Shown: positions 32,930 through 51,952 of the stretch, piece after piece
Numbering within the stretch: position 1 is the stretch's first letter
How the letters are laid out: the number at the start of each line of letters is the position of its first letter
Origin: Veillonella sp. VA142
GTDB taxonomy: Bacteria > Bacillota > Negativicutes > Veillonellales > Veillonellaceae
Length of the DNA stretch: 64,000 bases
Direction: 5' to 3'
Assembly: GCF_003992135.1 (NCBI RefSeq)
Contig: NZ_RQVN01000003.1
Coordinates: 62,001-126,000, forward strand
Made by a program: the position numbers and the translations under genes
The notes under the pieces: model-generated
Seen by the model: the letters and a program-made list of their open reading frames with translations, nothing else
Database searches by the model: none
Told to the model about the DNA's origin: nothing

Positions 32930-33207
32930 AGTACAATGTGTAAAATAGGAAAAGTGTGTCTCAGAAGAGCAAATGTTTACCTATCGTATTATGTAGATCC
33001 TAATAAGAGGCATATAATGTAATAGATAAGCATTTGCTTAGGTCGTGCAGCACTAAGCAAGGACATGGCCCAGAGTCAGGAGGGTGTTATCGATACAAGT
33101 CAGTTTGAGTTATGTAGTGTCACAATGTAGTAAGAAGTATATATCAGTGAGTCAATAAGATGTAAGTATCGTCGCGTGTTTTGTGTATAAAGGGGTATTG
33201 GATCACC
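32930..33207 (+). promoter_or_regulatory. Long 5' leader of the giant adhesin gene
   Basis: About 280 gene-free bases with local structure. AGCAAATG near 32969 can pair with CATTTGCT near 33028, and GCTTAG / CTAAGC form a hairpin around GTCGTGCAGCA (about 33036-33058). No known riboswitch was recognised. It ends at the AAAGGGGTA site before the ATG at 33208. Confidence 0.35.
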
Positions 33208-36200
33208 ATGAATAAGATATTCAAAGTTATTTGGAGTAAATCTAAACAATGTTATATCGTTGTATCTGAAGTGGCTAAAAATCATTCTGGTAAAAAGAAA
33301 ATTGTAGTAGTAAGTATCTTGGCGGCTATGGCTGTGGGGGCAGATATGAGTGTATCTGTTAATGCGGGAGGCCTAGATGGTGGATACGCGGCCTCTGCAG
33401 GGTCTATTGCCATTGGAAGTAATAGTTATTCCAAGGGAACTCAAGTTGATGGCCAGCACGGTTCTATTGACCCTAGTATTGCCATCGGCGTTAGATCGGT
33501 TGCTATTGGTAACTCCTCCTTAGCAATCGGATTAGATACAGATATTAGAAATTCATATGCCGTTGCCGTAGGTCGTTATTCAAAGGTAACGGGTGATTAT
33601 GGTATTGGTATTGGTTATAATACAAGATCTTCATTACATGGTATAGCCATGGGTGAACAAGCCCGCAGCATGAAAGAAGGGGCTACTACACTAGGTGTTA
33701 GTTCCCGTGGCTATGGTAACGGTGCCATTGCTATTGGTTGGCAATCTCTAGCTGGTGCCGATGTATATACAGTGGGTGTACCAGGTAATGATATTAATAA
33801 TGATAGCTCAAGCAAGATTGACGGCTATAATAGCTGGGGCGATATGTCTGTGGGCTTACGTGCTATGGCAACAGGTGGTAATGCGACAGCCTTAGGTCGT
33901 AATGCAGCGGCTACAGCAGCAAATGCGGTAGCTATCGGTGGTGGCGATGGTAAGAGTTTTAATGATAATGTAGAACGAACAGTAGCCTCTGGAGAAAAAG
34001 CGGCAGCGATTGGCTATAACTCTTCAGCATCAGGGAAAAGTGCATCTGCTTTGGGTACCAAGGCATCCGCCACTGCAGAGAATGCAGCAGCCATTGGTAC
34101 TAGTGCATCCGCTTCTGCAAAAGACACCTTGGCAGCAGGATCAAGTGCACAAGCTACTGCAGAAGGAGCGACAGCGGTAGGTAAAGAAGCAAAAGCCCAA
34201 AAAGCTGATGCTACTGCATTAGGTTCTGGTGCCACTGCATCAGAAACTAATGCCACAGCTCTTGGTAAAGGTGCTACGGCATCAAAAGGAGATGCTACAG
34301 CCGTAGGTTCTGGCGCTCAAGCAACTGAAGCAAATGCAGTCGCTGTCGGTAAAGGTGCTGAAGCATCAAAAGGTAATGCTATTGCGATAGGTAAAGAGGC
34401 AGAAGCAACAGAGGCTAGTGCTACTGCTATCGGTGATGGTGCCAATGCAGAAAAAGCGAATGCTGTTGCCATTGGTAAAGGTGCAATTTCAGGTGGTACC
34501 AGTGGTATTGCCATGGGTAATGATGCGCAAGCACAAGCAAAAGATACTATTGCAGTAGGTAGTTCATCTCGTGCTTCGAATGACAATGCTAGTGCATTTG
34601 GTAATGCAGCTACAGCAGCTGGTAGTGGCTCTACTGCTATCGGTTATCAAGCCAATACTACAGGGGCTAATTCTACAGCCATTGGTGCAGCAGCACAATC
34701 CACAAAAGCCAGCTCTACAGCTCTTGGTAACGGTGCTAAGGCGTTTGGTACATCTGCAATTGCTATTGGTGAGGGGGCGACTGTTGGTATAGCAGAAGGA
34801 AGAACTACAGCAGGGACTACACCAGCTGTGGATGCCCCAAATAGTATTGCCATCGGTAAAAATGCGAAGGTACTGGCTGGTTCTGGTAGCATTGCCTTAG
34901 GAGCAGGAACCGAAATCACCGCTTCAGATGTAGGCACATCTAGTGGGGCTGCACAAAAAACATATCCGTATATGCTAACAAATACAATAGGAACGGATGC
35001 GGTGTCAGATAAAGAGAATGGTATCGTAGCCATTGGTACAAAACGATCGTCTTCGGATACTGGCTTTGCCCGTCGTTTAACAGGTGTAGCAGGTGGTGTT
35101 GGCGATTACGATGCAGTCAACTTGAAACAAGCAAAAGCGATTGAAAGTTCCTTAAAAAAAGGAGAACGCCATATTAAGGCAACTTCCTATACTCCAAATG
35201 GATCAGGCACCATTACGTTAAATTATGTCGATGGTGAAAACAAGGATGTGTCTAATGAGACAGCAACTATTACAGATGTAGCGAAAAAATCTGTAGTAGA
35301 TGGCATTAACACGACAGTGAATACCCATACGACACAGATTACAAATCTTACTTCCGAAGTAGGAGGAAAAGTAAGCCAATCGGATTTTAATACTTTCAAG
35401 GCAAAAGCGATTACTTTCACAGGTGATGATAATGCTGGCGTAGCCCGTACATTAGATACGACGTTAACAGTGAAAGGCGGTGCTAATTACACATCCACCA
35501 CAGCGAATACAAACATTCGTGTAGAAAAAGATGGATCTTCTGGTGCTGCTGGTTTGCTTGTTAAATTATCTGACAAATTGACGGGGATGAAAGAAATCGC
35601 TGGCGATGGAAAAACGGATTTAGTCATCAAAAATGGCACGAATAAAGTAACTATCACACCTGGTAAAGATAATGATAAAGGTACTATTAACTTTGGCGAT
35701 GCAAAAGTTGTGGCATCTAATTTAGAAGCGGACATTACATACCGTGCAAATGGTGTTGCAGATACAGCTGCGAATACAGTGAAATTGAAAAAAGGTTTGA
35801 ATTTCACAGCAGCTACAGACACAACGACAACCACTGATGGTCCTAAATCTGGATTATCCATTACAACAGGTGGAGATGGATTGGTAACCTTTGGTTTAGA
35901 TAAAGCTACTCGTAGCAAAGTAGACAATGCAGCAGATAAAAACTTAAGCAATTTATCTGATAATGGCAAAGACAAAGTCAAAGAATTGGCAAAAACAGCG
36001 GCGCAAGATGCTGTAAAAGTAGCACCTGGTATCAATACAACGGTAACGACAGATACAACCACAACGCCTGGAGTTACTACGTATAAAGTAAATGCAATTG
36101 ATACAACAGTAGCAGTAGGTAGTGATGCATTAACGATTAACGATGCAACTCCAAATGCAAATAAAGTTCGTGCATACTCAGTAGATTTGTCCACTGCCAC

Positions 36201-39200
36201 AAAAGGTAAACTAGCAGCTGTAGGTAACTTGGCAACTGTGATCGGCGGAACCACAATTGCTGCAGATGGCACTGTAACAGGACCAACTTTCAATATTACG
36301 AAAGCGGATGGTGGTACTGATTCTGTAACTACGTTAAAAGGTGCTATCGATAAGTTAAATGCTACTAATGCAGGTCAAAATACGAAAATCTCTGAAACGG
36401 CTGGTAAAGTAGGAACGTTAGAAACAAATGTAACTAATCTAGGGAACACTGTCACTAATCTAGGAAATACAGTAACTAATTTGGGTAATACGGTAACGAA
36501 CAATTACAATGATTTGTCTAATAAAATTACCCAGGCTGGTACAAATGTAGCCTCTACATTGACTGCAAAAGGGTTAGACTTTACAGGTAACGATACAACA
36601 GATACAGGTAAAGTACACCGTGACTTAGGTACTACATTAACCATTCAAGGTGCAGAAAATTTCACGCGAGGAACTACTGATAACAACAATATTAAAGTGT
36701 CTAAAAACGGTAATACTTTAGACGTGAAATTAGCAGAGAACCTTGGCAATATCAAAGAAATCGCTGGAGATGGTACACATGACTTAGTGATTAAAAATGG
36801 CGACACTAAGGTGACTGTAAAAGCTCCTAAAGATGGAAATACTGGTAGTATTGATTTTGGAAATACGAAATTAGTAACTAATAATTTAGAAGCAGATATT
36901 GCCTATAAAGCAGGCGGTGAGTCATCGAAGAAAACTGTTAAATTGCAAACAGGCTTTACATTTGTGGCAGGTGAGGGCACAGTAGCACCAACAACGCCAG
37001 CAACAGGTGCAGCCACTACAACTAGTCCAACAGCATCTACAGATGGTAAAGTAGCTAAGAAAGGGATTGTTATCTCTACCGAAGCTGATGGCGTAGTAAA
37101 CATCGGTTTAGACAGTGATACACGTAGTGCTATCGATAATGCGGCGAACAAGGACTTGAGCAATCTAAATTCAGCTGGTACTAATAAAGTCTCTGAATTA
37201 GCGAAAGCAGCTGCGAAAGAAGCAGTAAAAGTAGACAATGGTATCAACACAACAGTGGATACAGATACAACCACAACACCTGGGGTTACTACGTATAAAG
37301 TAAATGCAATTGATACAACAGTAGCGGTAGGTAGTGATGCATTAACGATTAATGATGCAACTCCAAATACTACTACAAAAGTTCGTGCTTATTCGTTAGA
37401 TTTATCCGATGCGACAAAAAATAAATTAAAAGCGATAGGTAACTTGGCAACGGTGATCGGCGGAACCACAATTACTGCAGATGGCACTGTAACAGGCCCA
37501 ACTTTCAATATTACGAAAGCGGATGGTGGTACTGATTCTGTAACTACGTTAAAAGATGCTATCGATAAGTTAAATGCTACTAATGCAGGTCAAAATACGA
37601 AAATCTCTGAAACGGCTGGTAAAGTAGCAACCTTAGAAACAAATGTAACGAATCTTGGAAACACTGTCACTAACCTAGGAAATACGGTAACTAGCAATTA
37701 TAATGATTTGTCTAGTAAAATTACCCAAGCTGGTACAAATGTAGCCTCTACGTTGACTTCAAAAGGTTTAGACTTTACAGGTAATGATACAACAGATAAA
37801 GTACACCGAGACCTAGGTACTGTTTTAACTATTCAAGGTGCTGAAAACTTCATGCGAGGAAGTACTGATCACAATATTAAAGTGGTTAAAAACGGGGATG
37901 CTTTAGACGTTAAATTAGCAGAAAATCTTGGCAACATCAAAGAAATCGCTGGGGATGGTACGAATGATTTAGTAATCAAAAATGGTACGAATACAGTAAC
38001 TATCACAGCTGGTAAAACTGGCGACAATGGTACTGTTAACTTTGGCAATGCAAAAGTTGTAACCTCTAATTTAGACGCAGATATTGCTTATAAAGCAGGT
38101 ACTGAAACCTCCAAGAATAAGGTTAAATTAGCAGATGGATTTAACTTTGTAGCTGGTACTGGAACAGTAGCGGCAACAACGCCAGCAACGGGTGCAACAA
38201 CACCAGCAGCAGGCACAACAACGCCGGCAGCAGATACAGCAACTACAACTAGCCCAACGTCATCTACAGATGATAAAACAGCTAAGAAAGGGATTGTTAT
38301 CTCTACCGAAGCAAATGGCGTGGTCAACATCGGTTTAGATAGCGATACACGTAGTGCTATCGATAATGCGGCAAGTAAAAGCTATGTAGAAAATGCATTG
38401 ACTAATCTAAATAGTACAATTACAGGCAATGCAAATCTAAACTTTGCTGGTAATGTGACAAAAGATGCACAGGGTCACGATGCAAATAAAATTGGCTTAT
38501 CATTAGCGACTGGTACATTACATATCAAAGGTGATGCGACAGATATTACAACCACTGCAAAAGGTGACACTGTTACCATTGCTTTAACAGAAGGAACACA
38601 AAATAAATTAAAAGCGATAGGTAACTTGGCAAATGTCATTGGTGGTACAACAATTGCTGCAGATGGTACTGTGACAGGGCCAACTTTCAACATTACAAAA
38701 GCAGACGGCACTAATGAAAATGCAAATACCTTAAAAGAGGCCATCGAGAAGTTAAACGCTACAAATGAAGGTCAAAATACAAAAATCTCTGAAACGGCAG
38801 GCAAAGTAGGCACGCTAGAAACAAATGTAACGAATCTAGGAAACACTGTCACTAACCTAGGAAATACGGTAACAAACTTAGGTAATACGGTAACTAGCAA
38901 TTACAATGATTTGTCTAATAAAATCTCCCAAGCTGGTACAAATGTAGCCTCTACGTTGACTTCAAAAGGCTTAGATTTCTCAGGTAATGATACAGCAGAT
39001 AAAGTACACCGAGACCTAGGTACTGTTTTAACTATTCAAGGTGCTGATAACTTCACGCGGGGAAGTACTGATCACAATATTAAAGTGGTTAAAAACGGGG
39101 ATGCTTTAGACGTTAAATTAGCAGAGAACCTAGCGAAAATCAAAGAAATCTCTGGGGATGGATCAAATGACTTAGTCATCAAAAATGGCGACACTAAGGT

Positions 39201-42200
39201 GACTGTAAAAGCTCCTAAAGATGGAAATACAGGTAGCATCGACTTTGGGGATACGAAATTAGTCACTAAGAATTTAGAAGCAGATATTGCTTATAAAGCA
39301 GGCGGTGAGACAGCGAAGAAAACTGTTAAATTGCAAACAGGCTTTACATTTGTGGCAGGTGATGGTACAGTAGCGGCAACAACACCAGCAACCGGTGCAA
39401 CAACACCAGCAGCGGGCGCAACAACGCCAGCAGCAGGTACTGCTACTACAACTAGCCCAACGGCGTCTACAGATGATAAAACAGCTAAGAAAGGGATTGT
39501 TATCTCTACCGAAAATAATGGTGTAGTCAACATCGGTTTAGATAGTGATACACGTAGTGCTATCGATAATGCGGCAAGTAAAAACTATGTGGAAAATGCA
39601 TTAACTAATTTAAATAGTACTATTACCAATAATGCCAATCTAAACTTTGCTGGTAATGTGACTAAGGATGCACAAAATAACGATGCAAATAAAATTGGCT
39701 TATCATTAGCGTCTGGTACATTAAATATCAAAGGTGATGCGACAGATATTACAACCACTGCAAAAGGTGACACTGTTACCATCGCTTTAACAGAAGGAAC
39801 ACAAAATAAATTAAAAGCGGTAGGTAACTTGGCAAATGTCATCGGTGGTACAACAATTGCTGCAGATGGTACTGTAACAGGACCAACTTTCAGTATTACA
39901 AAAGCAGACGGCACTAATGAAAATGCAAATACCTTAAAAGAGGCACTCGATAAGTTAAATAGCACTAATGTAGGTCAAAATACAGCTATTACTACTTTAG
40001 GTACCCGAATTACTAGTTTAGTAGATGGTGGTATGGTATTTGCGGGCGATGATGCGACAGCAGATAAAGTGACTCGTAAATTAGGAGAAACTTTAAACAT
40101 CCATGGTCAAAACAACATCACGGTGAAAAAAGATGCTACAGATGCGACTACATTAAATGTAAAACTAGCAAGTGATTTGAAAAATATCACATCTATCACA
40201 AATGCCGATGCAGATAATAAACCAGGGACTACCATCTCAATTGGTGGAGACAGTGTAACGATTACCAATACACAAGCTCCAGCAACGGGTGCGATTACAG
40301 GGGTAACCAAAACTGTAACTATTGGCAAAAATGGTGTTGATGCGGGTAGCATGAAAATTACTAACGTGGCTGACGCAGAACATGACAATGATGCAGCAAA
40401 CAAAAAATACGTAGATACGGCGATTCGTAATTTAAATACTACAATTACCAATAATGCCAATCTAAACTTTGCTGGTAATGTCACAAAAGATGGTCAAGAT
40501 CACGATACAGATAAAGTAGGTTTAGCGTTAGCGACTGGTACATTACATATCAAAGGTGATGCGACAGATATTACAACCACTGCAAAAGGTGACACTGTTG
40601 AGATTGCCTTAACAAAAGCATTACAGGATAAGTTAAAACAATTAGGTGATACATCGGCAGATGGACGTGATGGAAAATCTGCCACTAGTACGCCAGGAGC
40701 ATCTGGTACAGCAGGTACATCCGGTACAGGCACAGCAGGTGCACCAGGAGCATCCGGTACCTCAGGTGCAGCAGGTACATCCGGTACATCTGGTACAGGC
40801 ACAGCAGGTGCACCAGGAGCATCCGGCACTCCAGGGGCGGCAGGAGCAGCAGGTACATCTGGTACAGGCACAGCAGGTGCACCAGGAGCATCTGGTACTC
40901 CAGGAACAACACCACCGGCATCTGCAGGATCTACAGGCCTAACAGGAGCTGATGGATTAAATGGACATACATTAACAGATAAAGTCAATGCATTGCGTAA
41001 TGGTGAAGCTGGGATCGTTGTCTATACTGATGACAAAGGTGAACGTCTACAGAAAGGTAATGATGGTAAGTATTACTATCCAACAGACCTAAAACCTGAT
41101 GGAACAGTAAAAACAGCAGCAGAAAACAATGGTAAAGAGCCAAAGCCAGTAGATAACCCACAAGCACGTATAGTGAATAGCAGTGGAGATACGAAAATAC
41201 CAACTACGTTCTCTAACATTGCAGATGGCAAGGTAGAAGCTGGTTCACATGATGCTGTTAACGGCGGACAACTGTATACAGTAAAAACTGATTTGACTAA
41301 CGCTGGTTTAGATTTCTACGGCAATGAAGACACTAGAGACGAATCTAAAGTACACCGTAACCTTGGACAAGTTCTAAAAATAAAAGGTGCAGGGAACTTC
41401 GAGCGTGCAGCAACAGCTACAAATAATATTAATGTAGTAAAAAACGCTACTGGTGATGGATTCGATATACAATTAGCAGAGAACCTTAGGGACATAAAAG
41501 AAATCGCTGGTGATGGCTCAAATGACTTAGTCATCAAAAACGGCGATACTAAGGTGACTGTAAAAGCACCTAAAGATGGCGATAAAGGTAGCATCAATTT
41601 TGGGAATACGAAATTAGTCACTAATAATTTAGAAGCAGATATTGCTTATAAAGCAGGCGGTGAGACAGCGAAGAAAACTGTTAAATTGCAAACAGGCTTT
41701 ACATTTGTGGCAGGTGACGGCACAGTAGCATCAACAACGCCAGCAACGGGTGTAACAACACCAGCAGCAGGCGCAACAACACCTGCAGCGGGTACAGCTA
41801 CTACAACTAGCCCAACGGCATCTACAGATGATAAAACAGCTAAGAAAGGGATTGTTATCTCTACCGAAGCAAATGGCGTGGTCAACATCGGTTTAGATAA
41901 AGATACACGTAGTGCTATCGATAATGCAGCAAGTAAATCTGAAGTCAATACAGCCATTACAAGCTTAAGTAAAACCATCTCTAATAATTCAAATCTACGA
42001 TATGCTGGTGATACTAATGTAGGTGCAGCAACGGGTGAAGATCATTTGAACTTAGCATTAGCTACAGGCACATTAAAAGTAGCTGGTACAGCAGGGGAAG
42101 TTAAAACTGTAGCGCAAGCAGGTACAATTACAATTTCTTTAGAACAAGCTGTAAAAGATAAGTTAGCTCAATTATCTGATAAAAATGCAGATGGTCGAGA

Positions 42201-45200
42201 TGGCAAATTAGGCAGCGAAGCGGATGCGATTGCCTCCACAGGCATTGCGAAAGAAGATGGCTTGAATGGTACTACTGCAACGTATAAAGTGAATGCTTTA
42301 CGTCATGGCGAAGCAGGTTCTGTTGTGTACACAGATGCAGATGGTAATCGTATTGTGAAAGCTACGGATGGTAATTACTACAAAGCCACAGAGGTTAATG
42401 CCGACGGTGTGGTAAAAACTGCTGATCAAAACAATGGCATAACTCCTGTAGCAGTAGATAAAACGACTATTGTGGCAACCCTTGTGAACACAGACGGTAC
42501 CACAGCACTAGCAGCAGATGATATCAACAAAGTAGCCACAACGAAGTTGACCAACATCAAAGAAGCTGCCATAACTGCCACTTCTAACGATGCTGTCACA
42601 GGTCGTCAGTTGTATGGATTAAAATCTGACTTAGCAACATACCTTGGTGGCGGTTCTGCAGTAGATGCTAATGGAACTTTCACAGGTCCTACGTACAACA
42701 TCACGAAAGATGATGGAACCAATGGAACGACACCAGTTAAGAGTGTAGGGGATGCAATTAGCAACTTAAATACTCGTATTAACAATGCAAACTCCTCGTT
42801 ATCTACAAAAGGCTTAGATTTCTACGGAAACAAAGACACTGTGGATACAGATAAAGTACATCGTAACCTTGGTGAAACTTTAAAATTAAAAGGTGCTGAG
42901 AATTTTGTTCGTGATGACAAAGCTAAAAATAATATCAATGTAGAAAAAAATACTACAGGTGATGGGTTCGATGTGAAATTAGCAGAAAACCTTGGTAATA
43001 TTAAAGAAATCGCTGGAGATGGAAAAACTGATTTGGTGATTAAAAATGGCGATGCCACAATCACCTTAAAACCGGCAACAGCGGATAAAACCGATCCTGA
43101 TACAGGTGTAGTGACACCAGGTAAAACAGCTACAGTAGACTTCGGCAATACTACATTGGTGGCTAAAAACCTAGAAACCGATATTACCTACCGTGCAAAT
43201 GGTGTTGCAGATACAGCTGCACACAAAGTGAAACTACAAAAAGGTTTGAACTTTGTGGCAGGTACTGGTACAGTGGCGCAACCAGCTGCAAGTACTACGC
43301 CAGCTACAGGCGGCGTGACAACACCAGCTACACCACCAGCAACGGATAGTGAAACAACAAAATCTGGTATTATGATCACAACTGGTGATAATGGATTAGT
43401 TACAATTGGTTTGGATAGCGATACTCGTAATGCTATCGATAATGCAGCCAATAAAGACTTGAGCAATTTGAGTCAAACAGGTAAAGACCAAGTGACTGCA
43501 TTAGCAAAAGCCGCTGCCAAAGATGTGGTAAAAGTTGAGGCTGGTAAAAATACGACGGTAACACCAAAACAAGATGGTGATGTAACGAAGTATGTAGTGG
43601 ATGCATACGATACGAAAGTAGCTGTATCGGGAACAGAGTTGACGATTAGTGGTGGAGAGCTAGATACGAATAATGTTCGTACCTATACATTAGGCTTATC
43701 CGATGATGTGAAAAATAAATTAACTGCAGTGACAAATGTAGGGAATACATCATCGGATGGTCGTGATGGTAAAGCAGCTAATGGCAAAGACGGTGCAGCA
43801 GGTAACGCAGGTGATAAAGGCTTAACTGGCAAAGATGGTCTAAATGGCAGCACATTAACAGATAAAGTCAATGCTTTACGTAATGGTGAAGCTGGTTCTG
43901 TAGTATATACAAATGAAGCTGGGGAACGACTCATCAAAGCCAATGATGGAAATTACTATAAACCTAGTGAAGTGAATACAGATGGTTCTGTGAAAACTCA
44001 GGCTGAAAACAACAATGTGCCTCCAACACCAGTAGCAAATCCACAAGCACGCATAGTGAATGGCAGTGGAGAGACTACGACACCAACTACGTTGTCTAAC
44101 ATTAAAGATGGCAAGATAGCAGATGGTTCACATGATGCTGTTAACGGTGGACAACTCCATACAGTGAAAACTGAATTGACTAAGGCTGGATTAGATTTCA
44201 CAGGCGATGATACGACGGATAAGGTGCACCGTGATTTAGGTACAACTTTAACGATTAAAGGTGGAGAAAACTTTACACGCGGTGCGAATGAAAACAATAT
44301 CAAAGTTGTGAAAAAAACTGATAAAGGTGTTGATAGACTTGATGTACAATTAGCAGAAAACCTTGGCAACATGAAAGGTATTTCTGGTAATGATACAGAT
44401 AGCTTGGTTATCAAAAACGGCGATGCTACGATTACGTTAACACCAGCGAAAGCAGCTGAAACCGATCCTGCTACAGGAACGACAACACCAGCAAAAACAG
44501 CTACAGTAGACTTCGGTAAAAGCAATGTGGTAGCTGAAAACTTGGATACAGATATTACATATCGAGCTAACAGTGTTGCAGATACAGCTGCACACAAAGT
44601 GAAACTGAAAAAAGGTTTAAACTTCGTATCTGCTACAGATACAGATACTACAACAGAAGGGCCTAAATCAGGTTTAACTATTACAACAGGTGATGATGGA
44701 TTAGTAACCTTTGGGTTAGATAAGGCCACTCGTAATGCTATTGACAATGTAGCCAACAAAGACTTGAGCAACTTGACTACAGAAGGTAAAAAAGTAATTA
44801 CCGATGCAGCACAAGGGGCTGTGAAAGTGAAAGCTGGTAACAATGTAACGATTGACCCAGAAACGAAAGACAATGTTACAACCTACACTGTAAACGGTCG
44901 AGATACGACAGTGCAAGCAGCAACAAGAGGCAGTGTATCTGTCACTGGTGGAACTCTAAGTGGCACAGGGGAACGAGCATATACAGTTGATTTGACAGAA
45001 ACAACGAAAACGGAAATCAATAAAATCTCAGGTATCAATACTCGCTTAGGTACAGCGGAAGGCAATATCACTACATTACAACAAGCAGTGCAAGGTGGTC
45101 GTGTCTTTACAGCAGATACTGGAGTGGCTTCTGCAACAGTAGCATTAGGTGAAACATTAGCAATCAAAGGTGGCGCAACAGGTACACTGATAGATGGCAA

Positions 45201-45966
45201 TATCGGCGTGGAATTAATTAAAGCCAATGACACATCACCAGCTACCATGATGATTCGTTTGAAAAAAGATATGGATATGAAAGATGGTTCTACATCCTAT
45301 GTTCATTACATGGATGTGAATGGTACATCTGTAAAGGCAGCTACCACAAAAGTGGATGGTACAGGTGTAACTATCACTCCAGAGGAAGGATCAAATAAAC
45401 CATCTGTTAAGTTAACAGCAGACGGATTATATAATGGTGATAATCCAATTCACAATGTAGGTGTTGGCACAAAACCAAATGATGCAGCGACTGTAGGGCA
45501 AGTAAATGCACTGGCAGGCGCAGTAAGCCAACGTGTGAATAACATTGGAGCGCATGCAGCAGCGTTAGCAGCAATGAATCCATTGAGCTATGATCCATTG
45601 AAAAAATCTCAAGTGATGGCAGGATATGGTTCCTATAAAGGAAGCAGTGCCTTAGCTTTAGGCGTAGCACACTATGCAAACGAAGATACTTTATTCAATG
45701 TAGGTGTCAGCGTAGGCAATGGTGAAAACATGGTGAATGCAGGCGTCACATACCGATTTGGCGGTGAAGACAGCATGATTCCAGAGCGTTATAAAGGTGG
45801 CCCAATTTCTTCCGTATACGTAATGCAAGATGAAATCACAGCATTGAAAGCAGAAAATGCTAGAAAAGACGTAGAAAATGCTAAAAAACAAGCAGAAAAC
45901 GAAGAAATGAAAGCACAAATTAAAATGCTCATCGAACGTGTAACTATGCTAGAAGCAAAAAAATAA
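33208..45966 (+). CDS. Giant trimeric autotransporter adhesin (YadA-like), 4252 residues
   Basis: Outer-membrane adhesin of type Vc secretion. The N-terminus MNKIFKVIWSKSKQCYIVVS is an ESPR extended signal, with a hydrophobic core near residues 33-46. Residues about 60-640 form a YadA-type head of many 14-residue repeats (A-x-A-x-G-x-x-A and A-I-G patterns), closed by a neck (D-A-V-N-L-K-Q-A-K). The stalk consists of repeated 390-500-residue modules marked by G-L-D-F, K-V-H-R-D/N-L-G, L-A-E-N-L and D-L-V-I-K-N-G. It includes a collagen-like stretch (about 2497-2566), short L-G-N-T-V-T-N repeats and P/T/A-rich linkers. The YadA anchor (about 4100-4185) ends in T-Y-R-F-G-G and is followed by a coiled-coil tail of about 65 residues. 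The ATG at 33208 has AAAGGGGTA upstream. A second adhesin gene follows. Binding partners are unknown. Confidence 0.95.
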   Translation: MNKIFKVIWSKSKQCYIVVSEVAKNHSGKKKIVVVSILAAMAVGADMSVSVNAGGLDGGYAASAGSIAIGSNSYSKGTQVDGQHGSIDPSIAIGVRSVAIGNSSLAIGLDTDIRNSYAVAVGRYSKVTGDYGIGIGYNTRSSLHGIAMGEQARSMKEGATTLGVSSRGYGNGAIAIGWQSLAGADVYTVGVPGNDINNDSSSKIDGYNSWGDMSVGLRAMATGGNATALGRNAAATAANAVAIGGGDGKSFNDNVERTVASGEKAAAIGYNSSASGKSASALGTKASATAENAAAIGTSASASAKDTLAAGSSAQATAEGATAVGKEAKAQKADATALGSGATASETNATALGKGATASKGDATAVGSGAQATEANAVAVGKGAEASKGNAIAIGKEAEATEASATAIGDGANAEKANAVAIGKGAISGGTSGIAMGNDAQAQAKDTIAVGSSSRASNDNASAFGNAATAAGSGSTAIGYQANTTGANSTAIGAAAQSTKASSTALGNGAKAFGTSAIAIGEGATVGIAEGRTTAGTTPAVDAPNSIAIGKNAKVLAGSGSIALGAGTEITASDVGTSSGAAQKTYPYMLTNTIGTDAVSDKENGIVAIGTKRSSSDTGFARRLTGVAGGVGDYDAVNLKQAKAIESSLKKGERHIKATSYTPNGSGTITLNYVDGENKDVSNETATITDVAKKSVVDGINTTVNTHTTQITNLTSEVGGKVSQSDFNTFKAKAITFTGDDNAGVARTLDTTLTVKGGANYTSTTANTNIRVEKDGSSGAAGLLVKLSDKLTGMKEIAGDGKTDLVIKNGTNKVTITPGKDNDKGTINFGDAKVVASNLEADITYRANGVADTAANTVKLKKGLNFTAATDTTTTTDGPKSGLSITTGGDGLVTFGLDKATRSKVDNAADKNLSNLSDNGKDKVKELAKTAAQDAVKVAPGINTTVTTDTTTTPGVTTYKVNAIDTTVAVGSDALTINDATPNANKVRAYSVDLSTATKGKLAAVGNLATVIGGTTIAADGTVTGPTFNITKADGGTDSVTTLKGAIDKLNATNAGQNTKISETAGKVGTLETNVTNLGNTVTNLGNTVTNLGNTVTNNYNDLSNKITQAGTNVASTLTAKGLDFTGNDTTDTGKVHRDLGTTLTIQGAENFTRGTTDNNNIKVSKNGNTLDVKLAENLGNIKEIAGDGTHDLVIKNGDTKVTVKAPKDGNTGSIDFGNTKLVTNNLEADIAYKAGGESSKKTVKLQTGFTFVAGEGTVAPTTPATGAATTTSPTASTDGKVAKKGIVISTEADGVVNIGLDSDTRSAIDNAANKDLSNLNSAGTNKVSELAKAAAKEAVKVDNGINTTVDTDTTTTPGVTTYKVNAIDTTVAVGSDALTINDATPNTTTKVRAYSLDLSDATKNKLKAIGNLATVIGGTTITADGTVTGPTFNITKADGGTDSVTTLKDAIDKLNATNAGQNTKISETAGKVATLETNVTNLGNTVTNLGNTVTSNYNDLSSKITQAGTNVASTLTSKGLDFTGNDTTDKVHRDLGTVLTIQGAENFMRGSTDHNIKVVKNGDALDVKLAENLGNIKEIAGDGTNDLVIKNGTNTVTITAGKTGDNGTVNFGNAKVVTSNLDADIAYKAGTETSKNKVKLADGFNFVAGTGTVAATTPATGATTPAAGTTTPAADTATTTSPTSSTDDKTAKKGIVISTEANGVVNIGLDSDTRSAIDNAASKSYVENALTNLNSTITGNANLNFAGNVTKDAQGHDANKIGLSLATGTLHIKGDATDITTTAKGDTVTIALTEGTQNKLKAIGNLANVIGGTTIAADGTVTGPTFNITKADGTNENANTLKEAIEKLNATNEGQNTKISETAGKVGTLETNVTNLGNTVTNLGNTVTNLGNTVTSNYNDLSNKISQAGTNVASTLTSKGLDFSGNDTADKVHRDLGTVLTIQGADNFTRGSTDHNIKVVKNGDALDVKLAENLAKIKEISGDGSNDLVIKNGDTKVTVKAPKDGNTGSIDFGDTKLVTKNLEADIAYKAGGETAKKTVKLQTGFTFVAGDGTVAATTPATGATTPAAGATTPAAGTATTTSPTASTDDKTAKKGIVISTENNGVVNIGLDSDTRSAIDNAASKNYVENALTNLNSTITNNANLNFAGNVTKDAQNNDANKIGLSLASGTLNIKGDATDITTTAKGDTVTIALTEGTQNKLKAVGNLANVIGGTTIAADGTVTGPTFSITKADGTNENANTLKEALDKLNSTNVGQNTAITTLGTRITSLVDGGMVFAGDDATADKVTRKLGETLNIHGQNNITVKKDATDATTLNVKLASDLKNITSITNADADNKPGTTISIGGDSVTITNTQAPATGAITGVTKTVTIGKNGVDAGSMKITNVADAEHDNDAANKKYVDTAIRNLNTTITNNANLNFAGNVTKDGQDHDTDKVGLALATGTLHIKGDATDITTTAKGDTVEIALTKALQDKLKQLGDTSADGRDGKSATSTPGASGTAGTSGTGTAGAPGASGTSGAAGTSGTSGTGTAGAPGASGTPGAAGAAGTSGTGTAGAPGASGTPGTTPPASAGSTGLTGADGLNGHTLTDKVNALRNGEAGIVVYTDDKGERLQKGNDGKYYYPTDLKPDGTVKTAAENNGKEPKPVDNPQARIVNSSGDTKIPTTFSNIADGKVEAGSHDAVNGGQLYTVKTDLTNAGLDFYGNEDTRDESKVHRNLGQVLKIKGAGNFERAATATNNINVVKNATGDGFDIQLAENLRDIKEIAGDGSNDLVIKNGDTKVTVKAPKDGDKGSINFGNTKLVTNNLEADIAYKAGGETAKKTVKLQTGFTFVAGDGTVASTTPATGVTTPAAGATTPAAGTATTTSPTASTDDKTAKKGIVISTEANGVVNIGLDKDTRSAIDNAASKSEVNTAITSLSKTISNNSNLRYAGDTNVGAATGEDHLNLALATGTLKVAGTAGEVKTVAQAGTITISLEQAVKDKLAQLSDKNADGRDGKLGSEADAIASTGIAKEDGLNGTTATYKVNALRHGEAGSVVYTDADGNRIVKATDGNYYKATEVNADGVVKTADQNNGITPVAVDKTTIVATLVNTDGTTALAADDINKVATTKLTNIKEAAITATSNDAVTGRQLYGLKSDLATYLGGGSAVDANGTFTGPTYNITKDDGTNGTTPVKSVGDAISNLNTRINNANSSLSTKGLDFYGNKDTVDTDKVHRNLGETLKLKGAENFVRDDKAKNNINVEKNTTGDGFDVKLAENLGNIKEIAGDGKTDLVIKNGDATITLKPATADKTDPDTGVVTPGKTATVDFGNTTLVAKNLETDITYRANGVADTAAHKVKLQKGLNFVAGTGTVAQPAASTTPATGGVTTPATPPATDSETTKSGIMITTGDNGLVTIGLDSDTRNAIDNAANKDLSNLSQTGKDQVTALAKAAAKDVVKVEAGKNTTVTPKQDGDVTKYVVDAYDTKVAVSGTELTISGGELDTNNVRTYTLGLSDDVKNKLTAVTNVGNTSSDGRDGKAANGKDGAAGNAGDKGLTGKDGLNGSTLTDKVNALRNGEAGSVVYTNEAGERLIKANDGNYYKPSEVNTDGSVKTQAENNNVPPTPVANPQARIVNGSGETTTPTTLSNIKDGKIADGSHDAVNGGQLHTVKTELTKAGLDFTGDDTTDKVHRDLGTTLTIKGGENFTRGANENNIKVVKKTDKGVDRLDVQLAENLGNMKGISGNDTDSLVIKNGDATITLTPAKAAETDPATGTTTPAKTATVDFGKSNVVAENLDTDITYRANSVADTAAHKVKLKKGLNFVSATDTDTTTEGPKSGLTITTGDDGLVTFGLDKATRNAIDNVANKDLSNLTTEGKKVITDAAQGAVKVKAGNNVTIDPETKDNVTTYTVNGRDTTVQAATRGSVSVTGGTLSGTGERAYTVDLTETTKTEINKISGINTRLGTAEGNITTLQQAVQGGRVFTADTGVASATVALGETLAIKGGATGTLIDGNIGVELIKANDTSPATMMIRLKKDMDMKDGSTSYVHYMDVNGTSVKAATTKVDGTGVTITPEEGSNKPSVKLTADGLYNGDNPIHNVGVGTKPNDAATVGQVNALAGAVSQRVNNIGAHAAALAAMNPLSYDPLKKSQVMAGYGSYKGSSALALGVAHYANEDTLFNVGVSVGNGENMVNAGVTYRFGGEDSMIPERYKGGPISSVYVMQDEITALKAENARKDVENAKKQAENEEMKAQIKMLIERVTMLEAKK
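36421..36508 (+). repeat. 21-bp coiled-coil repeat array in the adhesin stalk
   Basis: Tandem 7-residue units N-L-G-N-T-V-T: three full units after N-V-T. Homologous positions near 37640-37695 carry two units and near 38820-38895 three, so copy number differs between paralogous modules of the same gene. The third base differs among units, so each unit has drifted. Confidence 0.8.
38470..39965 (+). repeat. Near-identical duplicated stalk modules
   Basis: The segment from about 38480 to 38760 recurs at about 39680-39960 with only scattered base changes (for example the stretch from AAATTGGCTTATCATTAGCG to AAAAGAGG). Similar high identity links 36060-36560 with 37270-37760. Whole modules of about 1.2 kb are repeated, which indicates recent duplication or gene conversion. 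Confidence 0.8.
40696..40905 (+). repeat. Collagen-like Gly-X-Y region in the adhesin
   Basis: About 70 residues of Gly-X-Y triplets (GAS, GTA, GTS, GAP, GTP, GAA) rich in Ala, Ser, Thr and Pro. The register is broken three times by the dipeptide G-T before G-T-A-G-A-P-G-A-S. The DNA is built from repeats containing GGTACAGGCACAGCAGGTGC. The remainder of the stalk has no such triplets. Confidence 0.85.
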
Positions 45967-46008
45967 TAACCTATACATGAGGAAAATCCCTTAGTGTATG
46001 ACAAACAA

Positions 46009-46044
46009 ATGGACACCCAGTCGTTCGACTGAGTGTCCATTTTG
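46009..46044 (+). terminator. Terminator after the giant adhesin gene
   Basis: A 14-bp stem with one mismatch (TGGACAC-CAGTCG with its complement) and a TT loop is followed by four T. Confidence 0.8.
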
Positions 46045-46239
46045 CGTGTGCCCTTATGAAGTATATGTTCTACATACATTGTAAAAAGAAGAGGTATGAG
46101 GAATTGATATACAGCTTTGAAAAATATAATATAGAAAAATCTTAATCTATTAGGTATAATTTAGATGTATAAAATATACTAGAAAGTACATAATACTGAT
46201 GATATTCTGTGAACAGAACTCATTAACGAAACGTGCAGT

Positions 46240-46285
46240 TTCTCATAATAATAGGGGGGGGTAGAGACTTCTCCTCCCTATTTCT
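46240..46285 (+). promoter_or_regulatory. Hairpin with an eight-G tract between the two adhesins
   Basis: AATAGGG followed by further G (eight in a row, about 46254-46261) can pair with CCTCCCTATT, followed by TCTTTT. It could be a second terminator. The homopolymer is a possible slippage site. The rest of 46045-46310 shows nothing recognised. Confidence 0.4.
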
Positions 46286-46318
46286 TTTGAGAATGTATAA
46301 AGATACTTAAGATTGCAA

Positions 46319-46347
46319 TTGATATTTTTCGATATATTGTATATAAT
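46319..46347 (+). promoter_or_regulatory. Promoter of the second adhesin gene
   Basis: TTGATA (46319-46324) and TATAAT (46342-46347) are exactly 17 bases apart. The leader would be about 178 bases long. Confidence 0.75.
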
Positions 46348-46531
46348 GGTGCAGTATATCCTATATGATATAAAAAAATAAAAAATCATCTAGGATATGC
46401 AAGTAGTATCTATAATGGATGATATTCTCGTAAGAGTTGATCATATACGAGCTAAGTGCTCAATATTAGTTATGATTTACATATAAAATTGAAGTAGTTT
46501 GATGTTTAATAGTTTAGGAGGATGTATCTCA

Positions 46532-49500
46532 ATGAACAAATTATTCAAAGTTATTTGGAGCAAATCTAAGCAGTGCTACATCGTAGTATCGGAAGTAGCA
46601 AAGAATACAACAGGTAAAAAGAAAATCATTGTAGCCAGCGTATTAGCAGCGTTGACAGTAAGTGCGCAAGTAGCAACAGTAGAAGCGGCAATTCAAGAAG
46701 GTACAACATCAGGTGGTGCTTCTGTAGCGCTTGCAAATAGCGCAACAGCTTCTGGTAGTGGTGCTGTAGCCGTTGGTAATAACGCATCGGCAAGCACTAC
46801 GAATGCCTTGGCAGTGGGTACAAGTACTCAATCTACTGGTGATGGGTCTGTTGCGGTAGGTAGTGGCTCCAAAGCAACAGGTACATCTGCAGTAGCCGTT
46901 GGTGCTGGAGCTTATGCAAAAGAACATGGTGCGGTAGCACTTGGTAATAATGTTAACGTAGAAACAAATAAGGCCGTCGGCGTAGGTTTTGCCGTGACTG
47001 TACGTCAGGCAGGTGCTACTAATATTGGTTATTATTCTACGGTAAATACTAACCAAGCGCTCAGTGTGGGTGCTCGAAATGACGTAGATGGGGCAGCTCA
47101 ATATGGTACTGCAGTAGGTTACTTCGTAAAAGTAACTGGTAAAAATGCTGTGGCTATTGGTTCTAGTAATGATAACAGAGGTAACAGCGATTCAGGTAGA
47201 ACATTAGCGTCTGCAGACAGTGCGGTAGCCATCGGTACATCTGCTCATGCGGAAGCAGCACACTCTGTCGGTATGGGTACTTATGCAAGAGCGTCAGCTG
47301 AAAATGCAATCTCCTTTGGTACAAGTTCAGCTGCTAGCGGTGTGCAATCTATTGCTATCGGTGGCGCTATGAAAGGGGCAGAGGCCCCTAGCGCTTCTGG
47401 CACACAATCCATTGCTATCGGTGCAAAAACATCCGCTAATTCTGATAGTTCCATTGCTATGGGTTCAACAGCAACAGCATCTGGTGTAGCTACCACTGCT
47501 ATTGGTTCGGAAGTATTAGCGAAACAACATGGTTCCACAGCGATTGGTAATCAAGTTAAGGTAGAAGGAAATAAATCAGTTGGTCTTGGTTTCCAAGTGA
47601 GTTCCAAACAAGATGGCACTACAGCCATCGGTTATATTACCAATGTATTGGGTAACCAATCTGTAGGTATTGGCTCTAATATGACTGTTGGTGAAAATGC
47701 TGGCGGTGCCGTTGCGATTGGTTACATGTCTAGTGTAACAGGTCAAAGTGGTATTGGCATTGGTTCCAATGGGACATCCGCATCTGCTGATAGCACAATT
47801 GCTCTCGGTAATACGTCAAAAGCATCTGGAACGTCAGCAATTGCAATCGGTAAAAATTCTAATGCTGCCTTAGCTCACTCCGTAGCACTAGGTGAAGGGT
47901 CTACAACAGCAGAAGCTGATGGTAACGCTACAAACGGATACTTAACAAACGATGCTGTTAATAATACAGGTAACGGCGTGATTTCCGTAGGTAATGGTGG
48001 TAGTATCCTACGTCGTATCACTAGTGTTGCGAGCGGTACAAACGATAACGATGCCATCAATGTAAAACAATTGAAAGCACTACGTAATGCATCTATTAGC
48101 ACAGTATCAGTTGTGAATGGGGCGACAACAACGGACCTGGTACCTAGTACGGCAGTAGGTGATACAGATGCTAATAAAGTAAAATTGGTGGCAGGCAAAA
48201 ATATCACATTAACAGCCGCAGGTAATTCTGTGACAATCGCTGCTAAGAGTGAAGTAAACTCTATCACAAGTGGTAATACTGATGCCATTTCTGTATCAAC
48301 TGGTACAGATGGCAAGGTAAGTGTAACTCCAAACTTGGCATCTAACGTGAATACAGCAGGCGATGCCAATAAATTGGTAACAGCGGGTAAAGTAAAAGAA
48401 GCCTTAGCTGACAAAGTAAGCAATGATACGTTAACTACAGAATTAGCGAAAAAAGCAAATGCTGCTGATGTAACTAATCTAACAACCAATAAGTTAGACA
48501 AAACAGCTGAATTACACGTGAAAAAAGGAACATACAGCGTAGCTACTGATGGATCTGTAACATTGGACAAAGCAGATGGCACAGGTGCTACTAAATCTGA
48601 TGAAGCAGTAAAAATTACTGGTTTAGCAAGTAAAGCAAAATTAGATGAATTAAAAACTACTGTTGATGCTAAAGCAGACAAATCCTACGTAGATACTGAA
48701 CTTGGTAAAAAAGTAAGTACAACCGATATGAATACAGCCTTAGCAGATAAAGTAAGTACTGCAAAACTAACGGAAGAATTAAATAAAAAAGCAAATGCGT
48801 CTGATATTACTAATTTAACATCTGATAAAGTAAGCAAAGCCGATGAATTACATGTGAAAAAAGGTACGTTCGCTGTGAATACAGAAGGTAAAGTCACTTT
48901 GAAAAAAGTGAATGGTGCTGGAGCTGAAGCTAATGGAGAAGATGTTGTCATCGAAGGTCTTGCAAGCAAATCTGAAATTACTGCGATTAACACTGAATTA
49001 GCTAAAAAAGTAAGCAACGATACTTTCACGGCGGAGAAAAATCGTGTAAATGGTGAGCTGGCTAACAAATTAGACACTGCTACCTTTGAAACTGCGAAAG
49101 CCACATTGGCAACACATGATGATATCAATGCATTAAAAGAGGTCATTGCTAATAAACTTGATAAAGATACGGCTAATGCATTCGTTGAGGGCATGAAAAA
49201 TAAGGTATCTACTGATGTTTTAAACAAAAAGTTAGAAGATGCAGATAAGGCTAATGCAGATAAATTAAAGGCAGCAAAAGATGAGTTAAATACTGCTATT
49301 ACAAATGCTACCGCTGATAAAGTAAGCAAAGCTGATGAATTGCATGTTGTGGCAGATAGTTACGAAGTAGATCAAGTAGCTGGTACTGTTACATTACGCC
49401 AAGAAAATGGCTTGAACGAACCAAAGGCTGATAAAAACTTCACAATTACTGGTATCGCTACGAAACAAGATGTTACTAATTTAACAACTAAAATCGGTGA

Positions 49501-51565
49501 AAAAGCAGACAAATCTTATGTAGATACTGAGCTTGGTAAAAAAGCAAATGCAGCAGATGTAGCTACAGAATTAGGTAAAAAGGCAGATCAAAGTGCATTA
49601 ACAGCGTTAGAGGGTAAAGTAAATGCTAAAGCGGATGCATCTGCTCTTGCTACAATGGGCGAGAACAAATTAGATAAAGCCGCTGAGTTACATGTGAAAA
49701 CTGGTAATCCATATACAGTTGATGCTAATGGCAATGTGACGTTAAAACAAGAAAATGGTGAAGGTACAGAAGCAGCTGGTAAAGATATTGTTATTGAAGG
49801 TATAGCATCCAAAGCAAACTTAGATACATTAAAAGGTCGTGTAGATACTGCTGATGGTAAGATTGATACATTAACAGAAAAAGTAGCAGGCCATGAAGAA
49901 AAGTTAGGAAAACTTGATGAAAAGTTAACTAATGTAAAAGCTCTCGCAGATGAAAATAAAGGCAAAGTTGATGGTTTAACAACTCGAGTTGACGGTATCG
50001 ATGGTACATTAGCTGATCATACTGCAAAACTTGAAGAGGCTAAAAATGGAATTGATGGCATCAATCAAAACCTTACTAATAACTATGCAACTAATGACGC
50101 TGTAAATAAAAAATTAGATAATCTAAAAACTGAGTTAGGTACTAACACAGTACTCCACTTTGCTGGCGATAAAACTATCGATGAAAACGGTACACCAGAT
50201 AATCCTGCAGATGATGACAATAGTGCGACTAAATTGGCCTTGAACCTAAAAGACCAAACGTTAAAAGTAAAAGGTACTACTGGTGAAATCGAAACCACAG
50301 CAAAAGGTGATACAATCACTCTAGCTTTATCTAAAGCTGTTAAAGATGATTTAGCTAAAGTGGCTCAACTTGGTGATACATCTGCCGATGGTCGTGATGG
50401 TGCTAATGGTACTGCAAAAGATACAGGGTTAACGGCTAAGGACGGCTTGAATGGTAAGACTTTAACGGAAAAAGTAAATGCTATCCGTAATGGCGAGGCG
50501 GGTTCTGTTGTTTACACCGATGATCAAGGAAATCGTTTGACAAAAGCAAACGATGGTAAGTATTACTTGGCAGATGATGTTGGCGAAGATGGTAATAAAA
50601 AAGGGTCAGCTCAACCTGTAGAAACAGATAAATTACAAGTCAATGCAGTGAATCCACTAGATCCAACAAAAGGTGTAAAAATGTCCAACCTTGTGGATGG
50701 GAAGATTGCAGCTAATTCTAAAGATGCCGTGACTGGTAACCAAGTGTATAATACAACAAACTCCATTGCTACAGCCCTAGGTGGTGGTGCTAGTGTAAAT
50801 ACTGATGGAACACTTAGTGAGCCAACATATAATTTGAAAGATAAAAATGGTAATGCGGTTACCAAACATAATGTAGGAGATGCGTTAGCAACCATTAATG
50901 ATCGTTTCGATTCTATTAGCTCTGCTACCAATGTAGAAGTAGATAAGTTGAAAGATATGGAAAATCTTACTGATACAGGCAAAAAAAATATTAAGAGCTT
51001 GGTAGGTGAGGCAATCAATATCAAAGGTGATGGTAAGATTATTGCTACAGCTCATACTGATGAAAGTGGTAATAAAATATTCTCTTTACAATTAAGTCGT
51101 GATATGGCAACGGCAGATCAAGTTAACGAAGTACGTCAAAAAGCGGAACAAAACTCTAAACGTATCAGCGAAGTAGGAGCACACTCTGCAGCGTTAGCAG
51201 CATTAAATCCATTAAGCTACGATCCATTGAGAAAATCTCAAATCATGGCAGGTGTTGGTACATATGCAGGTAACCAAGCATTAGCATTAGGTCTTGCACA
51301 CTATGCAAATGAAAACTTCATGGTAACAGCTGGACTTACAATGGGAGCTGGTAAAAGCATGGCTAATCTAGGTGCTACATACCGTTTCGGCACAGGTGAA
51401 GATGATGCTATTCCAGAACGTTACAAAGGAGGTCCAATCTCCTCCGTATATGTAATGCAAGATGAGATTACAGCGTTGAAAGCAGAAAACGCTAGAAAAG
51501 ATGCAGAAAATGCAGAAATGAAGGCACAAATTAAAATGCTTATGGAACGCATGGGTTTAGCATAA
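46532..51565 (+). CDS. Trimeric autotransporter adhesin (YadA-like), 1677 residues
   Basis: Second type Vc adhesin, in tandem with the first. The ESPR MNKLFKVIWSKSKQCYIVVS is almost the same as in the neighbour, followed by a hydrophobic core. Residues about 55-490 are YadA head repeats, closed by the neck D-A-I-N-V-K-Q-L-K. The stalk differs: it has four modules starting E-L-H-V (near 48510, 48845, 49338 and 49686) with alternating coiled coil rich in K and A-D (K-S-Y-V-D-T-E-L-G-K-K). It also has the shared N-G-E-A-G-S-V-V-Y-T module near 50490. The YadA anchor (A-L-N-P-L-S-Y-D-P-L-R-K-S-Q to T-Y-R-F-G-T-G) is followed by a coiled-coil tail of about 55 residues. The start at 46532 follows TAGGAGGATG. 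Confidence 0.95.
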   Translation: MNKLFKVIWSKSKQCYIVVSEVAKNTTGKKKIIVASVLAALTVSAQVATVEAAIQEGTTSGGASVALANSATASGSGAVAVGNNASASTTNALAVGTSTQSTGDGSVAVGSGSKATGTSAVAVGAGAYAKEHGAVALGNNVNVETNKAVGVGFAVTVRQAGATNIGYYSTVNTNQALSVGARNDVDGAAQYGTAVGYFVKVTGKNAVAIGSSNDNRGNSDSGRTLASADSAVAIGTSAHAEAAHSVGMGTYARASAENAISFGTSSAASGVQSIAIGGAMKGAEAPSASGTQSIAIGAKTSANSDSSIAMGSTATASGVATTAIGSEVLAKQHGSTAIGNQVKVEGNKSVGLGFQVSSKQDGTTAIGYITNVLGNQSVGIGSNMTVGENAGGAVAIGYMSSVTGQSGIGIGSNGTSASADSTIALGNTSKASGTSAIAIGKNSNAALAHSVALGEGSTTAEADGNATNGYLTNDAVNNTGNGVISVGNGGSILRRITSVASGTNDNDAINVKQLKALRNASISTVSVVNGATTTDLVPSTAVGDTDANKVKLVAGKNITLTAAGNSVTIAAKSEVNSITSGNTDAISVSTGTDGKVSVTPNLASNVNTAGDANKLVTAGKVKEALADKVSNDTLTTELAKKANAADVTNLTTNKLDKTAELHVKKGTYSVATDGSVTLDKADGTGATKSDEAVKITGLASKAKLDELKTTVDAKADKSYVDTELGKKVSTTDMNTALADKVSTAKLTEELNKKANASDITNLTSDKVSKADELHVKKGTFAVNTEGKVTLKKVNGAGAEANGEDVVIEGLASKSEITAINTELAKKVSNDTFTAEKNRVNGELANKLDTATFETAKATLATHDDINALKEVIANKLDKDTANAFVEGMKNKVSTDVLNKKLEDADKANADKLKAAKDELNTAITNATADKVSKADELHVVADSYEVDQVAGTVTLRQENGLNEPKADKNFTITGIATKQDVTNLTTKIGEKADKSYVDTELGKKANAADVATELGKKADQSALTALEGKVNAKADASALATMGENKLDKAAELHVKTGNPYTVDANGNVTLKQENGEGTEAAGKDIVIEGIASKANLDTLKGRVDTADGKIDTLTEKVAGHEEKLGKLDEKLTNVKALADENKGKVDGLTTRVDGIDGTLADHTAKLEEAKNGIDGINQNLTNNYATNDAVNKKLDNLKTELGTNTVLHFAGDKTIDENGTPDNPADDDNSATKLALNLKDQTLKVKGTTGEIETTAKGDTITLALSKAVKDDLAKVAQLGDTSADGRDGANGTAKDTGLTAKDGLNGKTLTEKVNAIRNGEAGSVVYTDDQGNRLTKANDGKYYLADDVGEDGNKKGSAQPVETDKLQVNAVNPLDPTKGVKMSNLVDGKIAANSKDAVTGNQVYNTTNSIATALGGGASVNTDGTLSEPTYNLKDKNGNAVTKHNVGDALATINDRFDSISSATNVEVDKLKDMENLTDTGKKNIKSLVGEAINIKGDGKIIATAHTDESGNKIFSLQLSRDMATADQVNEVRQKAEQNSKRISEVGAHSAALAALNPLSYDPLRKSQIMAGVGTYAGNQALALGLAHYANENFMVTAGLTMGAGKSMANLGATYRFGTGEDDAIPERYKGGPISSVYVMQDEITALKAENARKDAENAEMKAQIKMLMERMGLA

Positions 51566-51899: not shown

Positions 51900-51924
51900 A
51901 GAAATCACTCCTTTTCTTGTGGTT

Positions 51925-51952
51925 ATTGTAGAACAGTTCGGGACATTGTCAA
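51925..51952 (-). promoter_or_regulatory. Promoter of the antitoxin-like gene
   Basis: On the minus strand TTGACA (51947-51952) and TACAAT (51925-51930) are 16 bases apart. The spacer holds CGAACTGTTC, a possible operator for self-regulation. 51960-52310 holds no further gene that can be supported. Confidence 0.65.

What the first reader, a model, noticed from the sequence alone, without database searches (positions are those of the whole stretch)
45770..51565. Coiled-coil tail after the YadA membrane anchor in both adhesins
In ordinary trimeric autotransporters the last beta-strand of the anchor ends the protein. Here T-Y-R-F-G is followed by 55-65 residues with the conserved I-P-E-R-Y-K-G-G-P-I-S-S-V-Y-V-M-Q-D-E-I-T-A-L-K-A-E-N-A-R-K and a charged coiled coil. 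The tail would lie in the periplasm as a trimeric coiled coil and might dock to peptidoglycan, OmpM-type tethers or assembly factors.
Basis: partly seen in the sequence, partly recalled or inferred. Interest (0 to 1): 0.62.

Follow-up and report, generated by a model that had tools for sequence, protein, structure and literature searches.

The report
Periplasmic coiled-coil tail on adhesins
Both giant Veillonella-type surface adhesins carry a real, selectively maintained coiled-coil tail that should hang inside the cell envelope below their membrane barrel; such tails were already reported in 2020, so this is ordinary for the group, but what the coil does is still unproven.

Summary
Both window adhesins are YadA-type trimeric autotransporters whose four-stranded anchor is followed by 68 and 58 residues. 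They share a 31-residue block (IPERYKGGPISSVYVMQDEITALKAENARKD) that is identical in protein, with 12 DNA differences, all synonymous. All 17 anchors in this genome have a tail, as do 107 of 108 distinct anchors sampled from Negativicutes, Synergistota, Fusobacterium and Neisseria. AlphaFold2 puts a flexible spacer and then one helix starting at the Gly-Pro of the motif. Hydrophobic a/d positions stay in phase with the motif for up to eight heptads, and coil lengths differ by sevens (34/41/48/55/62), so it is a true continuous coiled coil. dN/dS of the coil equals the barrel's; that of the motif is lower. A scan for the GPISS motif over about 85,000 species gave 72 places, 70 of them encoding YadA-anchor relatives. 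The tail itself is already published (Bechon 2020; Poppleton 2017 for the SLH form; a 2026 preprint I could not read). I favour an in-cis trimerisation and lock module under the barrel. Peptidoglycan docking fits the SLH tails only; for coil-only tails it is unsupported. New here are the neck motif, heptad-quantised length and selection data.

The parts
45589..45759 (+). YadA anchor (PF03895) of adhesin 1: four beta-strands, ends ..NAGVTYRF
   Evidence: Pfam E 7.7e-12 and 2.8e-14 in the genome scan; AF2 strands 39-48, 51-61, 66-75, 78-87; Foldseek match to Hia, AtaA and YadA anchors
45760..45963 (+). 68-residue C-terminal tail of adhesin 1
45778..45834 (+). Neck motif IPERYKGGPISSVYVMQDE of adhesin 1
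   Evidence: near-invariant Y, G, P, Y, Q in anchor-selected relatives; dN/dS 0.03-0.04
45802..45960 (+). Coil helix of adhesin 1, starting at the Pro of the motif
   Evidence: AF2 helix 104-156, pLDDT mostly 79-90; heptad phase
51221..51388 (+). YadA anchor (PF03895) of adhesin 2
51389..51562 (+). 58-residue C-terminal tail of adhesin 2
51410..51466 (+). Neck motif IPERYKGGPISSVYVMQDE of adhesin 2
51434..51550 (+). Coil helix of adhesin 2
   Evidence: AF2 helix 106-144, pLDDT 77-96
33181..45966 (+). Adhesin 1, trimeric autotransporter, 4261 aa
46499..51565 (+). Adhesin 2, trimeric autotransporter, 1688 aa

Best explanation
The tail is a periplasmic three-stranded coiled coil built onto the inner end of the YadA barrel. 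A flexible spacer and a conserved neck (Y-x-x-G-P-I-S-S-V-Y-V-x-Q-x-E) bring the three chains from the barrel wall to the axis; Gly-Pro caps the helix and the coil runs in strict heptads to a hydrophobic end. Its most likely job is in cis: (1) it helps three anchor chains find each other in register before or during insertion by the BAM machinery, and (2) afterwards it sits below the barrel as a bulky hydrophilic knob that resists pulling the long fibre out. Anchor, topology, coil and selection are shown or follow directly; both functions (1) and (2) are inferred.
For: Tail after every anchor in the genome, across 17 divergent paralogues, and after 107 of 108 distinct anchors sampled. Heptad a/d positions are 60% and 68% strongly hydrophobic against 3-20% elsewhere in 56 non-redundant tails, in phase with the motif even beyond four heptads (contrast 0.47, shuffled sd 0.036), and the same on 35 anchor-selected tails. 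The distance from motif to the terminal MKAQI block is 34, 41, 48, 55 or 62 in 17 of 21 tails. The penultimate heptad is 92% hydrophobic at a/d, like a trimer nucleus. dN/dS: barrel 0.089, coil 0.084, neck 0.038; 0.077, 0.066, 0.031 without motif-selected loci. Sequence conservation is highest next to the barrel and fades distally. The motif is private to YadA anchors: 70 of 72 places in about 85,000 genomes encode anchor relatives, and every own-genome hit lies in an anchor ORF. Known partners do these jobs in trans elsewhere: TpgA-N under the AtaA barrel doubles simulated pull-out force (PMC13082670) and trimeric SadB aids SadA display (PMC3953254).
Against: No trimer model or experiment. 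Asn is the commonest a-position residue (26%), and Asn at a is more typical of dimers (own knowledge). The near-invariant Tyr and Gln of the neck fall at non-core heptad positions, so the neck may bind something else. Classical TAAs trimerise and anchor without any tail, so the tail is not generally required.
Confidence: 0.5

Rival explanations
1. The conserved neck is a docking site for a specific periplasmic or BAM-associated partner, and the coil only presents it or stabilises it.
For: Near-invariant Tyr and Gln at non-core positions in two phyla; neck under stronger selection than barrel and coil; periplasmic partners are known for SadA and AtaA.
Against: Eight of 17 anchors in the same genome lack the neck motif yet have tails, so no universal partner needs it; no partner-like gene lies beside the two adhesins.
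Confidence: 0.2
2. The tail tethers the adhesin non-covalently to peptidoglycan or to OmpM-type tethers.
For: Sister adhesins in the same genome and order end in SLH domains after a similar coil, and periplasmic SLH is proposed to bind peptidoglycan (PMC5491611, PMC7549365).
Against: Coil-only tails hold no SLH, OmpA or other PG-binding domain; the distal end that would reach the wall is the least conserved part; coil lengths in one cell vary from about 5.7 to 10.8 nm.
Confidence: 0.15
3. Lpp-like covalent attachment through a C-terminal lysine of the trimeric coil.
For: 12 of 17 tails in this genome end in Lys against 14% of 285 genes in 400 kb of the same genome.
Against: No YkuD L,D-transpeptidase family match in the 99.8% complete genome; many relatives end in GMA, GLA or KKG; basic helix ends are generally favourable (own knowledge).
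Confidence: 0.03
4. Functionless read-through extension or an accident of annotation.
For: Anchors without tails work in Hia and YadA.
Against: dN/dS 0.03-0.09 across neck and coil, zero of 12 differences non-synonymous between the two window necks, heptad-quantised lengths.
Confidence: 0.03

Closest known systems
Veillonella parvula trimeric autotransporters VtaB-VtaI (Bechon et al. 2020, PMC7549365)
   Same: YadA anchor followed by a C-terminal coiled coil or SLH domain; the authors note it in all Veillonella TAAs, other Negativicutes, Synergistetes and Fusobacteria
   Different: In the text read here they give no sequence motif, register, selection or length analysis and state that the coil's function is unknown
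Global TAA survey, Dorison et al. bioRxiv 2026 (doi 10.64898/2026.01.22.700529), as cited in PMC13082670
   Same: Cited for C-terminal periplasmic extensions being widespread
   Different: Not held here, so I cannot say whether it already describes the neck motif or a function
Fusobacterium nucleatum CbpF (PDB 9gh4/9gh5, PMC12012533)
   Same: Matches the query anchor and the start of the tail (E 1e-8; YVVQNEVKRLTVEN aligns with YVMQDEITALKAEN)
   Different: Shorter spacer and no GPISS; anchor region not resolved at high resolution in the cryo-EM map
AtaA with TpgA, Acinetobacter (PDB 9vnj, PMC13082670)
   Same: YadA-type barrel reinforced from the periplasmic side
   Different: The reinforcement is a separate peptidoglycan-binding protein, not a tail of the adhesin
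SadB lipoprotein of SadA (PMC3953254)
   Same: A trimeric periplasmic protein with a coiled coil that aids a TAA
   Different: Separate inner-membrane lipoprotein with additional domains

Membership tests
Type Vc / YadA-family trimeric autotransporter | PF03895 membrane anchor above the curated cut-off | tested here: met
   45.5 and 46.4 bits against cut-off 22.7
Type Vc / YadA-family trimeric autotransporter | Extended signal peptide, YadA head repeats and stalk | tested here: met
   PF13018 and PF05658 in both; PF05662 above cut-off in adhesin 1, just below it (27.7 against 28.4) in adhesin 2
Type Vc / YadA-family trimeric autotransporter | Four-stranded anchor with the fold of Hia and YadA | tested here: met
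   AF2 models; Foldseek best hits 3emo, 2gr7, 2gr8, 9vnj, 2lme
Type Vc / YadA-family trimeric autotransporter | Homotrimer at the cell surface | not testable with these tools
   no multimer prediction or experiment available
TAA with extra C-terminal coiled-coil domain (Bechon 2020 class) | Coiled coil after the YadA anchor, at the C-terminus | tested here: met
   heptad test, helix prediction, tail in 17 of 17 own anchors
TAA with SLH tail | SLH domain after the anchor | tested here: not met
   no SLH in the two window proteins; two other anchors of the genome have it
Lpp-like peptidoglycan-linked trimeric coil | YkuD transpeptidase in the genome | tested here: not met
   no PF03734 match, controls ring

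The most novel reading that the evidence does not exclude
The GPISSVYVxQ neck is a dedicated inner-face adaptor of YadA barrels, shared by Negativicutes and Synergistota with a looser form in Fusobacterium, that couples barrel closure to a length-variable trimeric coil and so provides in cis what TpgA and SadB provide in trans in Proteobacteria.
Probability: 0.35. Interest if true: 0.55.

Novelty: already known. Interest (0 to 1): 0.3.

Why it matters
These adhesins drive biofilm formation in a common member of the human microbiota, and how very long fibres stay in the outer membrane and find their trimer register is an open question. The tail gives a small, deletable part on which to test it. 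The neck motif and the heptad-quantised length make specific predictions: changes of seven residues should be tolerated, changes of one to three should not.

Tried and rejected
Lpp-like covalent link by a C-terminal Lys: enriched in this genome but no YkuD enzyme and not conserved in relatives. Partner gene beside the adhesins: neighbours are methionine synthase, a thioesterase, a DUF6290 ORF, an ECF transporter subunit and an ABC ATPase. Tail in phages: none. Tail alone against solved structures: no match. A named family for the tail in NCBIfam: none beyond general TAA models. Co-occurrence of the neck with a YDP loop before the first strand: 45 of 46 neck tails have it, but so do most SLH and many other anchors, so uninformative. 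Tree of 93 anchors on 71 columns: neck clustered (5 changes) but too few columns to separate old inheritance from transfer between phyla. E. coli control genomes could not be scanned, so the claim that proteobacterial anchors end at the barrel rests on PDB chains and PMC7549365, and the Neisseria anchors found here do have coil tails.

Full report
What was checked. The finding says that two adjacent adhesins carry 55-65 residues with a shared motif and a coiled coil behind the YadA membrane anchor. Both open frames are typical YadA-family trimeric autotransporters with extended signal peptide, head repeats, stalk and a PF03895 anchor. The anchors end at 45759 and 51388, and 68 and 58 residues follow. 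The 31-residue block IPERYKGGPISSVYVMQDEITALKAENARKD is identical in both; the DNA differs at 12 of 93 positions, all synonymous, whereas the barrels share 34 of 57 residues. So this is a maintained element, not a fresh copy.

How common it is. The window's genome (1.97 Mb, 65 contigs, 99.8% complete) has 17 anchors and every one has a tail of about 40 to 100 residues. Nine carry the GPIS neck in full or in looser form, six another spacer with a coil, two an SLH domain. A scan of 299 genomes of the phylum found anchors only in the window's own class apart from one partial match below the cut-off elsewhere in the phylum. Over loci fetched by the anchor alone (five genus-mates, other Negativicutes, Dialister, Negativicoccus, Synergistota, Fusobacterium vincentii, and a Neisseria record), 107 of 108 distinct anchors have at least 37 extra residues; the exception is a Dialister anchor with 14. 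These loci are the best-scoring ones of each search, not a random sample.

The neck motif. A scan of about 85,000 species genomes with the pattern GPISS[VSI][YL][VT][MLF][QH] matched 72 places, and 70 encode relatives of the query anchor plus tail; they lie in Veillonella, Megasphaera, Negativicoccus, Dialister, unnamed Negativicutes, and in Synergistota (Pyramidobacter and a Synergistales MAG). A few of these matches cover only the motif end because the contig starts there. In the own genome every tail-like hit is in an anchor ORF. Because those 70 were chosen by the motif, conservation was measured on anchor-selected sequences only: Tyr, Gly, Pro, Tyr and Gln are invariant or nearly so in 27 non-redundant tails, and entropy rises towards the distal coil. 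Fusobacterium keeps YVxQxEVxxLxxEN without GPISS; its structurally studied relative CbpF aligns with the query into this stretch (E 1e-8), but its anchor region was not resolved at high resolution (PMC12012533).

Is it a coiled coil. AlphaFold2 with 56 and 26 sequences gives a pore helix, four strands, a low-confidence spacer (pLDDT about 57-63), and one helix that begins at the Pro of Gly-Pro and runs to or near the end. The barrel part matches Hia, AtaA and YadA anchors. In 56 non-redundant tails the a and d positions, counted from the motif, are strongly hydrophobic in 60% and 68% of cases against 3-20% elsewhere, and the phase is kept beyond four heptads (contrast 0.47, shuffles sd 0.036). 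The result is the same on 35 anchor-selected tails. The distance from motif to a conserved terminal block is 34, 41, 48, 55 or 62 residues in 17 of 21 tails; four share a distance of 54. Indels in steps of seven are what a continuous coiled coil demands. Tails with other spacers also show a heptad pattern in 34 of 46 cases at shuffle p up to 0.05.

Is it under selection. In 19 independent ortholog or close-paralog pairs dN/dS is 0.089 for the barrel, 0.038 for the neck and 0.084 for the coil. With anchor-selected loci only (9 pairs) it is 0.077, 0.031 and 0.066, and for eight pairs of other tails 0.083 (barrel) and 0.095 (tail). The tail is maintained as strictly as the barrel.

What it most likely does. 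An even number of strands returns the chain to the periplasm, so the tail lies inside; that is inference from the fold. The membrane-proximal conservation, the hydrophobic distal heptad (92% at a/d), and the freedom in coil length argue for a local job at the barrel: gathering three chains and holding them, first as an assembly aid, later as a lock against extraction. Proteobacteria have separate proteins for such jobs: SadB (PMC3953254) and TpgA, whose N-domain alone doubles simulated pull-out force (PMC13082670). The near-invariant Tyr and Gln at non-core positions leave room for a bound partner or for contact with the barrel's inner face. Peptidoglycan docking is plausible for the SLH-tailed sisters but not supported for coil-only tails: no binding domain, poorly conserved distal end, and lengths of 38 to 72 helical residues in one cell (5.7-10.8 nm at 1.5 angstrom per residue). 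The many C-terminal lysines (12 of 17 against 14% background) invite an Lpp-like idea, but the genome has no YkuD transpeptidase.

What is known. Bechon et al. 2020 (PMC7549365) state that all Veillonella trimeric autotransporters carry an extra C-terminal SLH or coiled-coil domain after the YadA anchor, that these occur in other Negativicutes, Synergistetes and Fusobacteria, that the function of the coil is unknown, and that Streptobacillus has an OmpA version. Poppleton et al. 2017 (PMC5491611) describe the SLH form. A 2026 preprint by Dorison et al. is cited for widespread C-terminal periplasmic extensions (PMC13082670); I could not read it. The finding is therefore a correct sighting of a known feature. 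The neck motif, its restriction to these anchors, the heptad-quantised lengths and the selection figures are added here; whether the preprint already holds them is unknown.

Noticed in passing
L043 (genus-mate G299:C45) and L160 (Neisseria record NZ_CP119142.1): A trimeric autotransporter of a genus-mate is 74% identical over 424 aa, tail included, to one in a Neisseria gonorrhoeae record, suggesting transfer between the two genera.
   Followed up: partly
own genome, 17 anchors; window 45961-45963: Twelve of 17 adhesin tails end in lysine against 14% of 285 genes in the same genome; unexplained beyond helix-end charge.
   Followed up: partly
L098 and three relatives: Four Veillonella tails have the motif-to-end distance 54 instead of 55, a one-residue skip in otherwise heptad-spaced coils built of repeated SSVKxDNxRMQ units.
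   Followed up: no
51678-52124 (-): A DUF6290 ORF (possibly an antitoxin-type small protein, from memory) lies just after adhesin 2.
   Followed up: no
own genome C28:246-16782: Four anchors lie within about 17 kb on contig C28, an adhesin cluster like the one reported for V. parvula.
   Followed up: no
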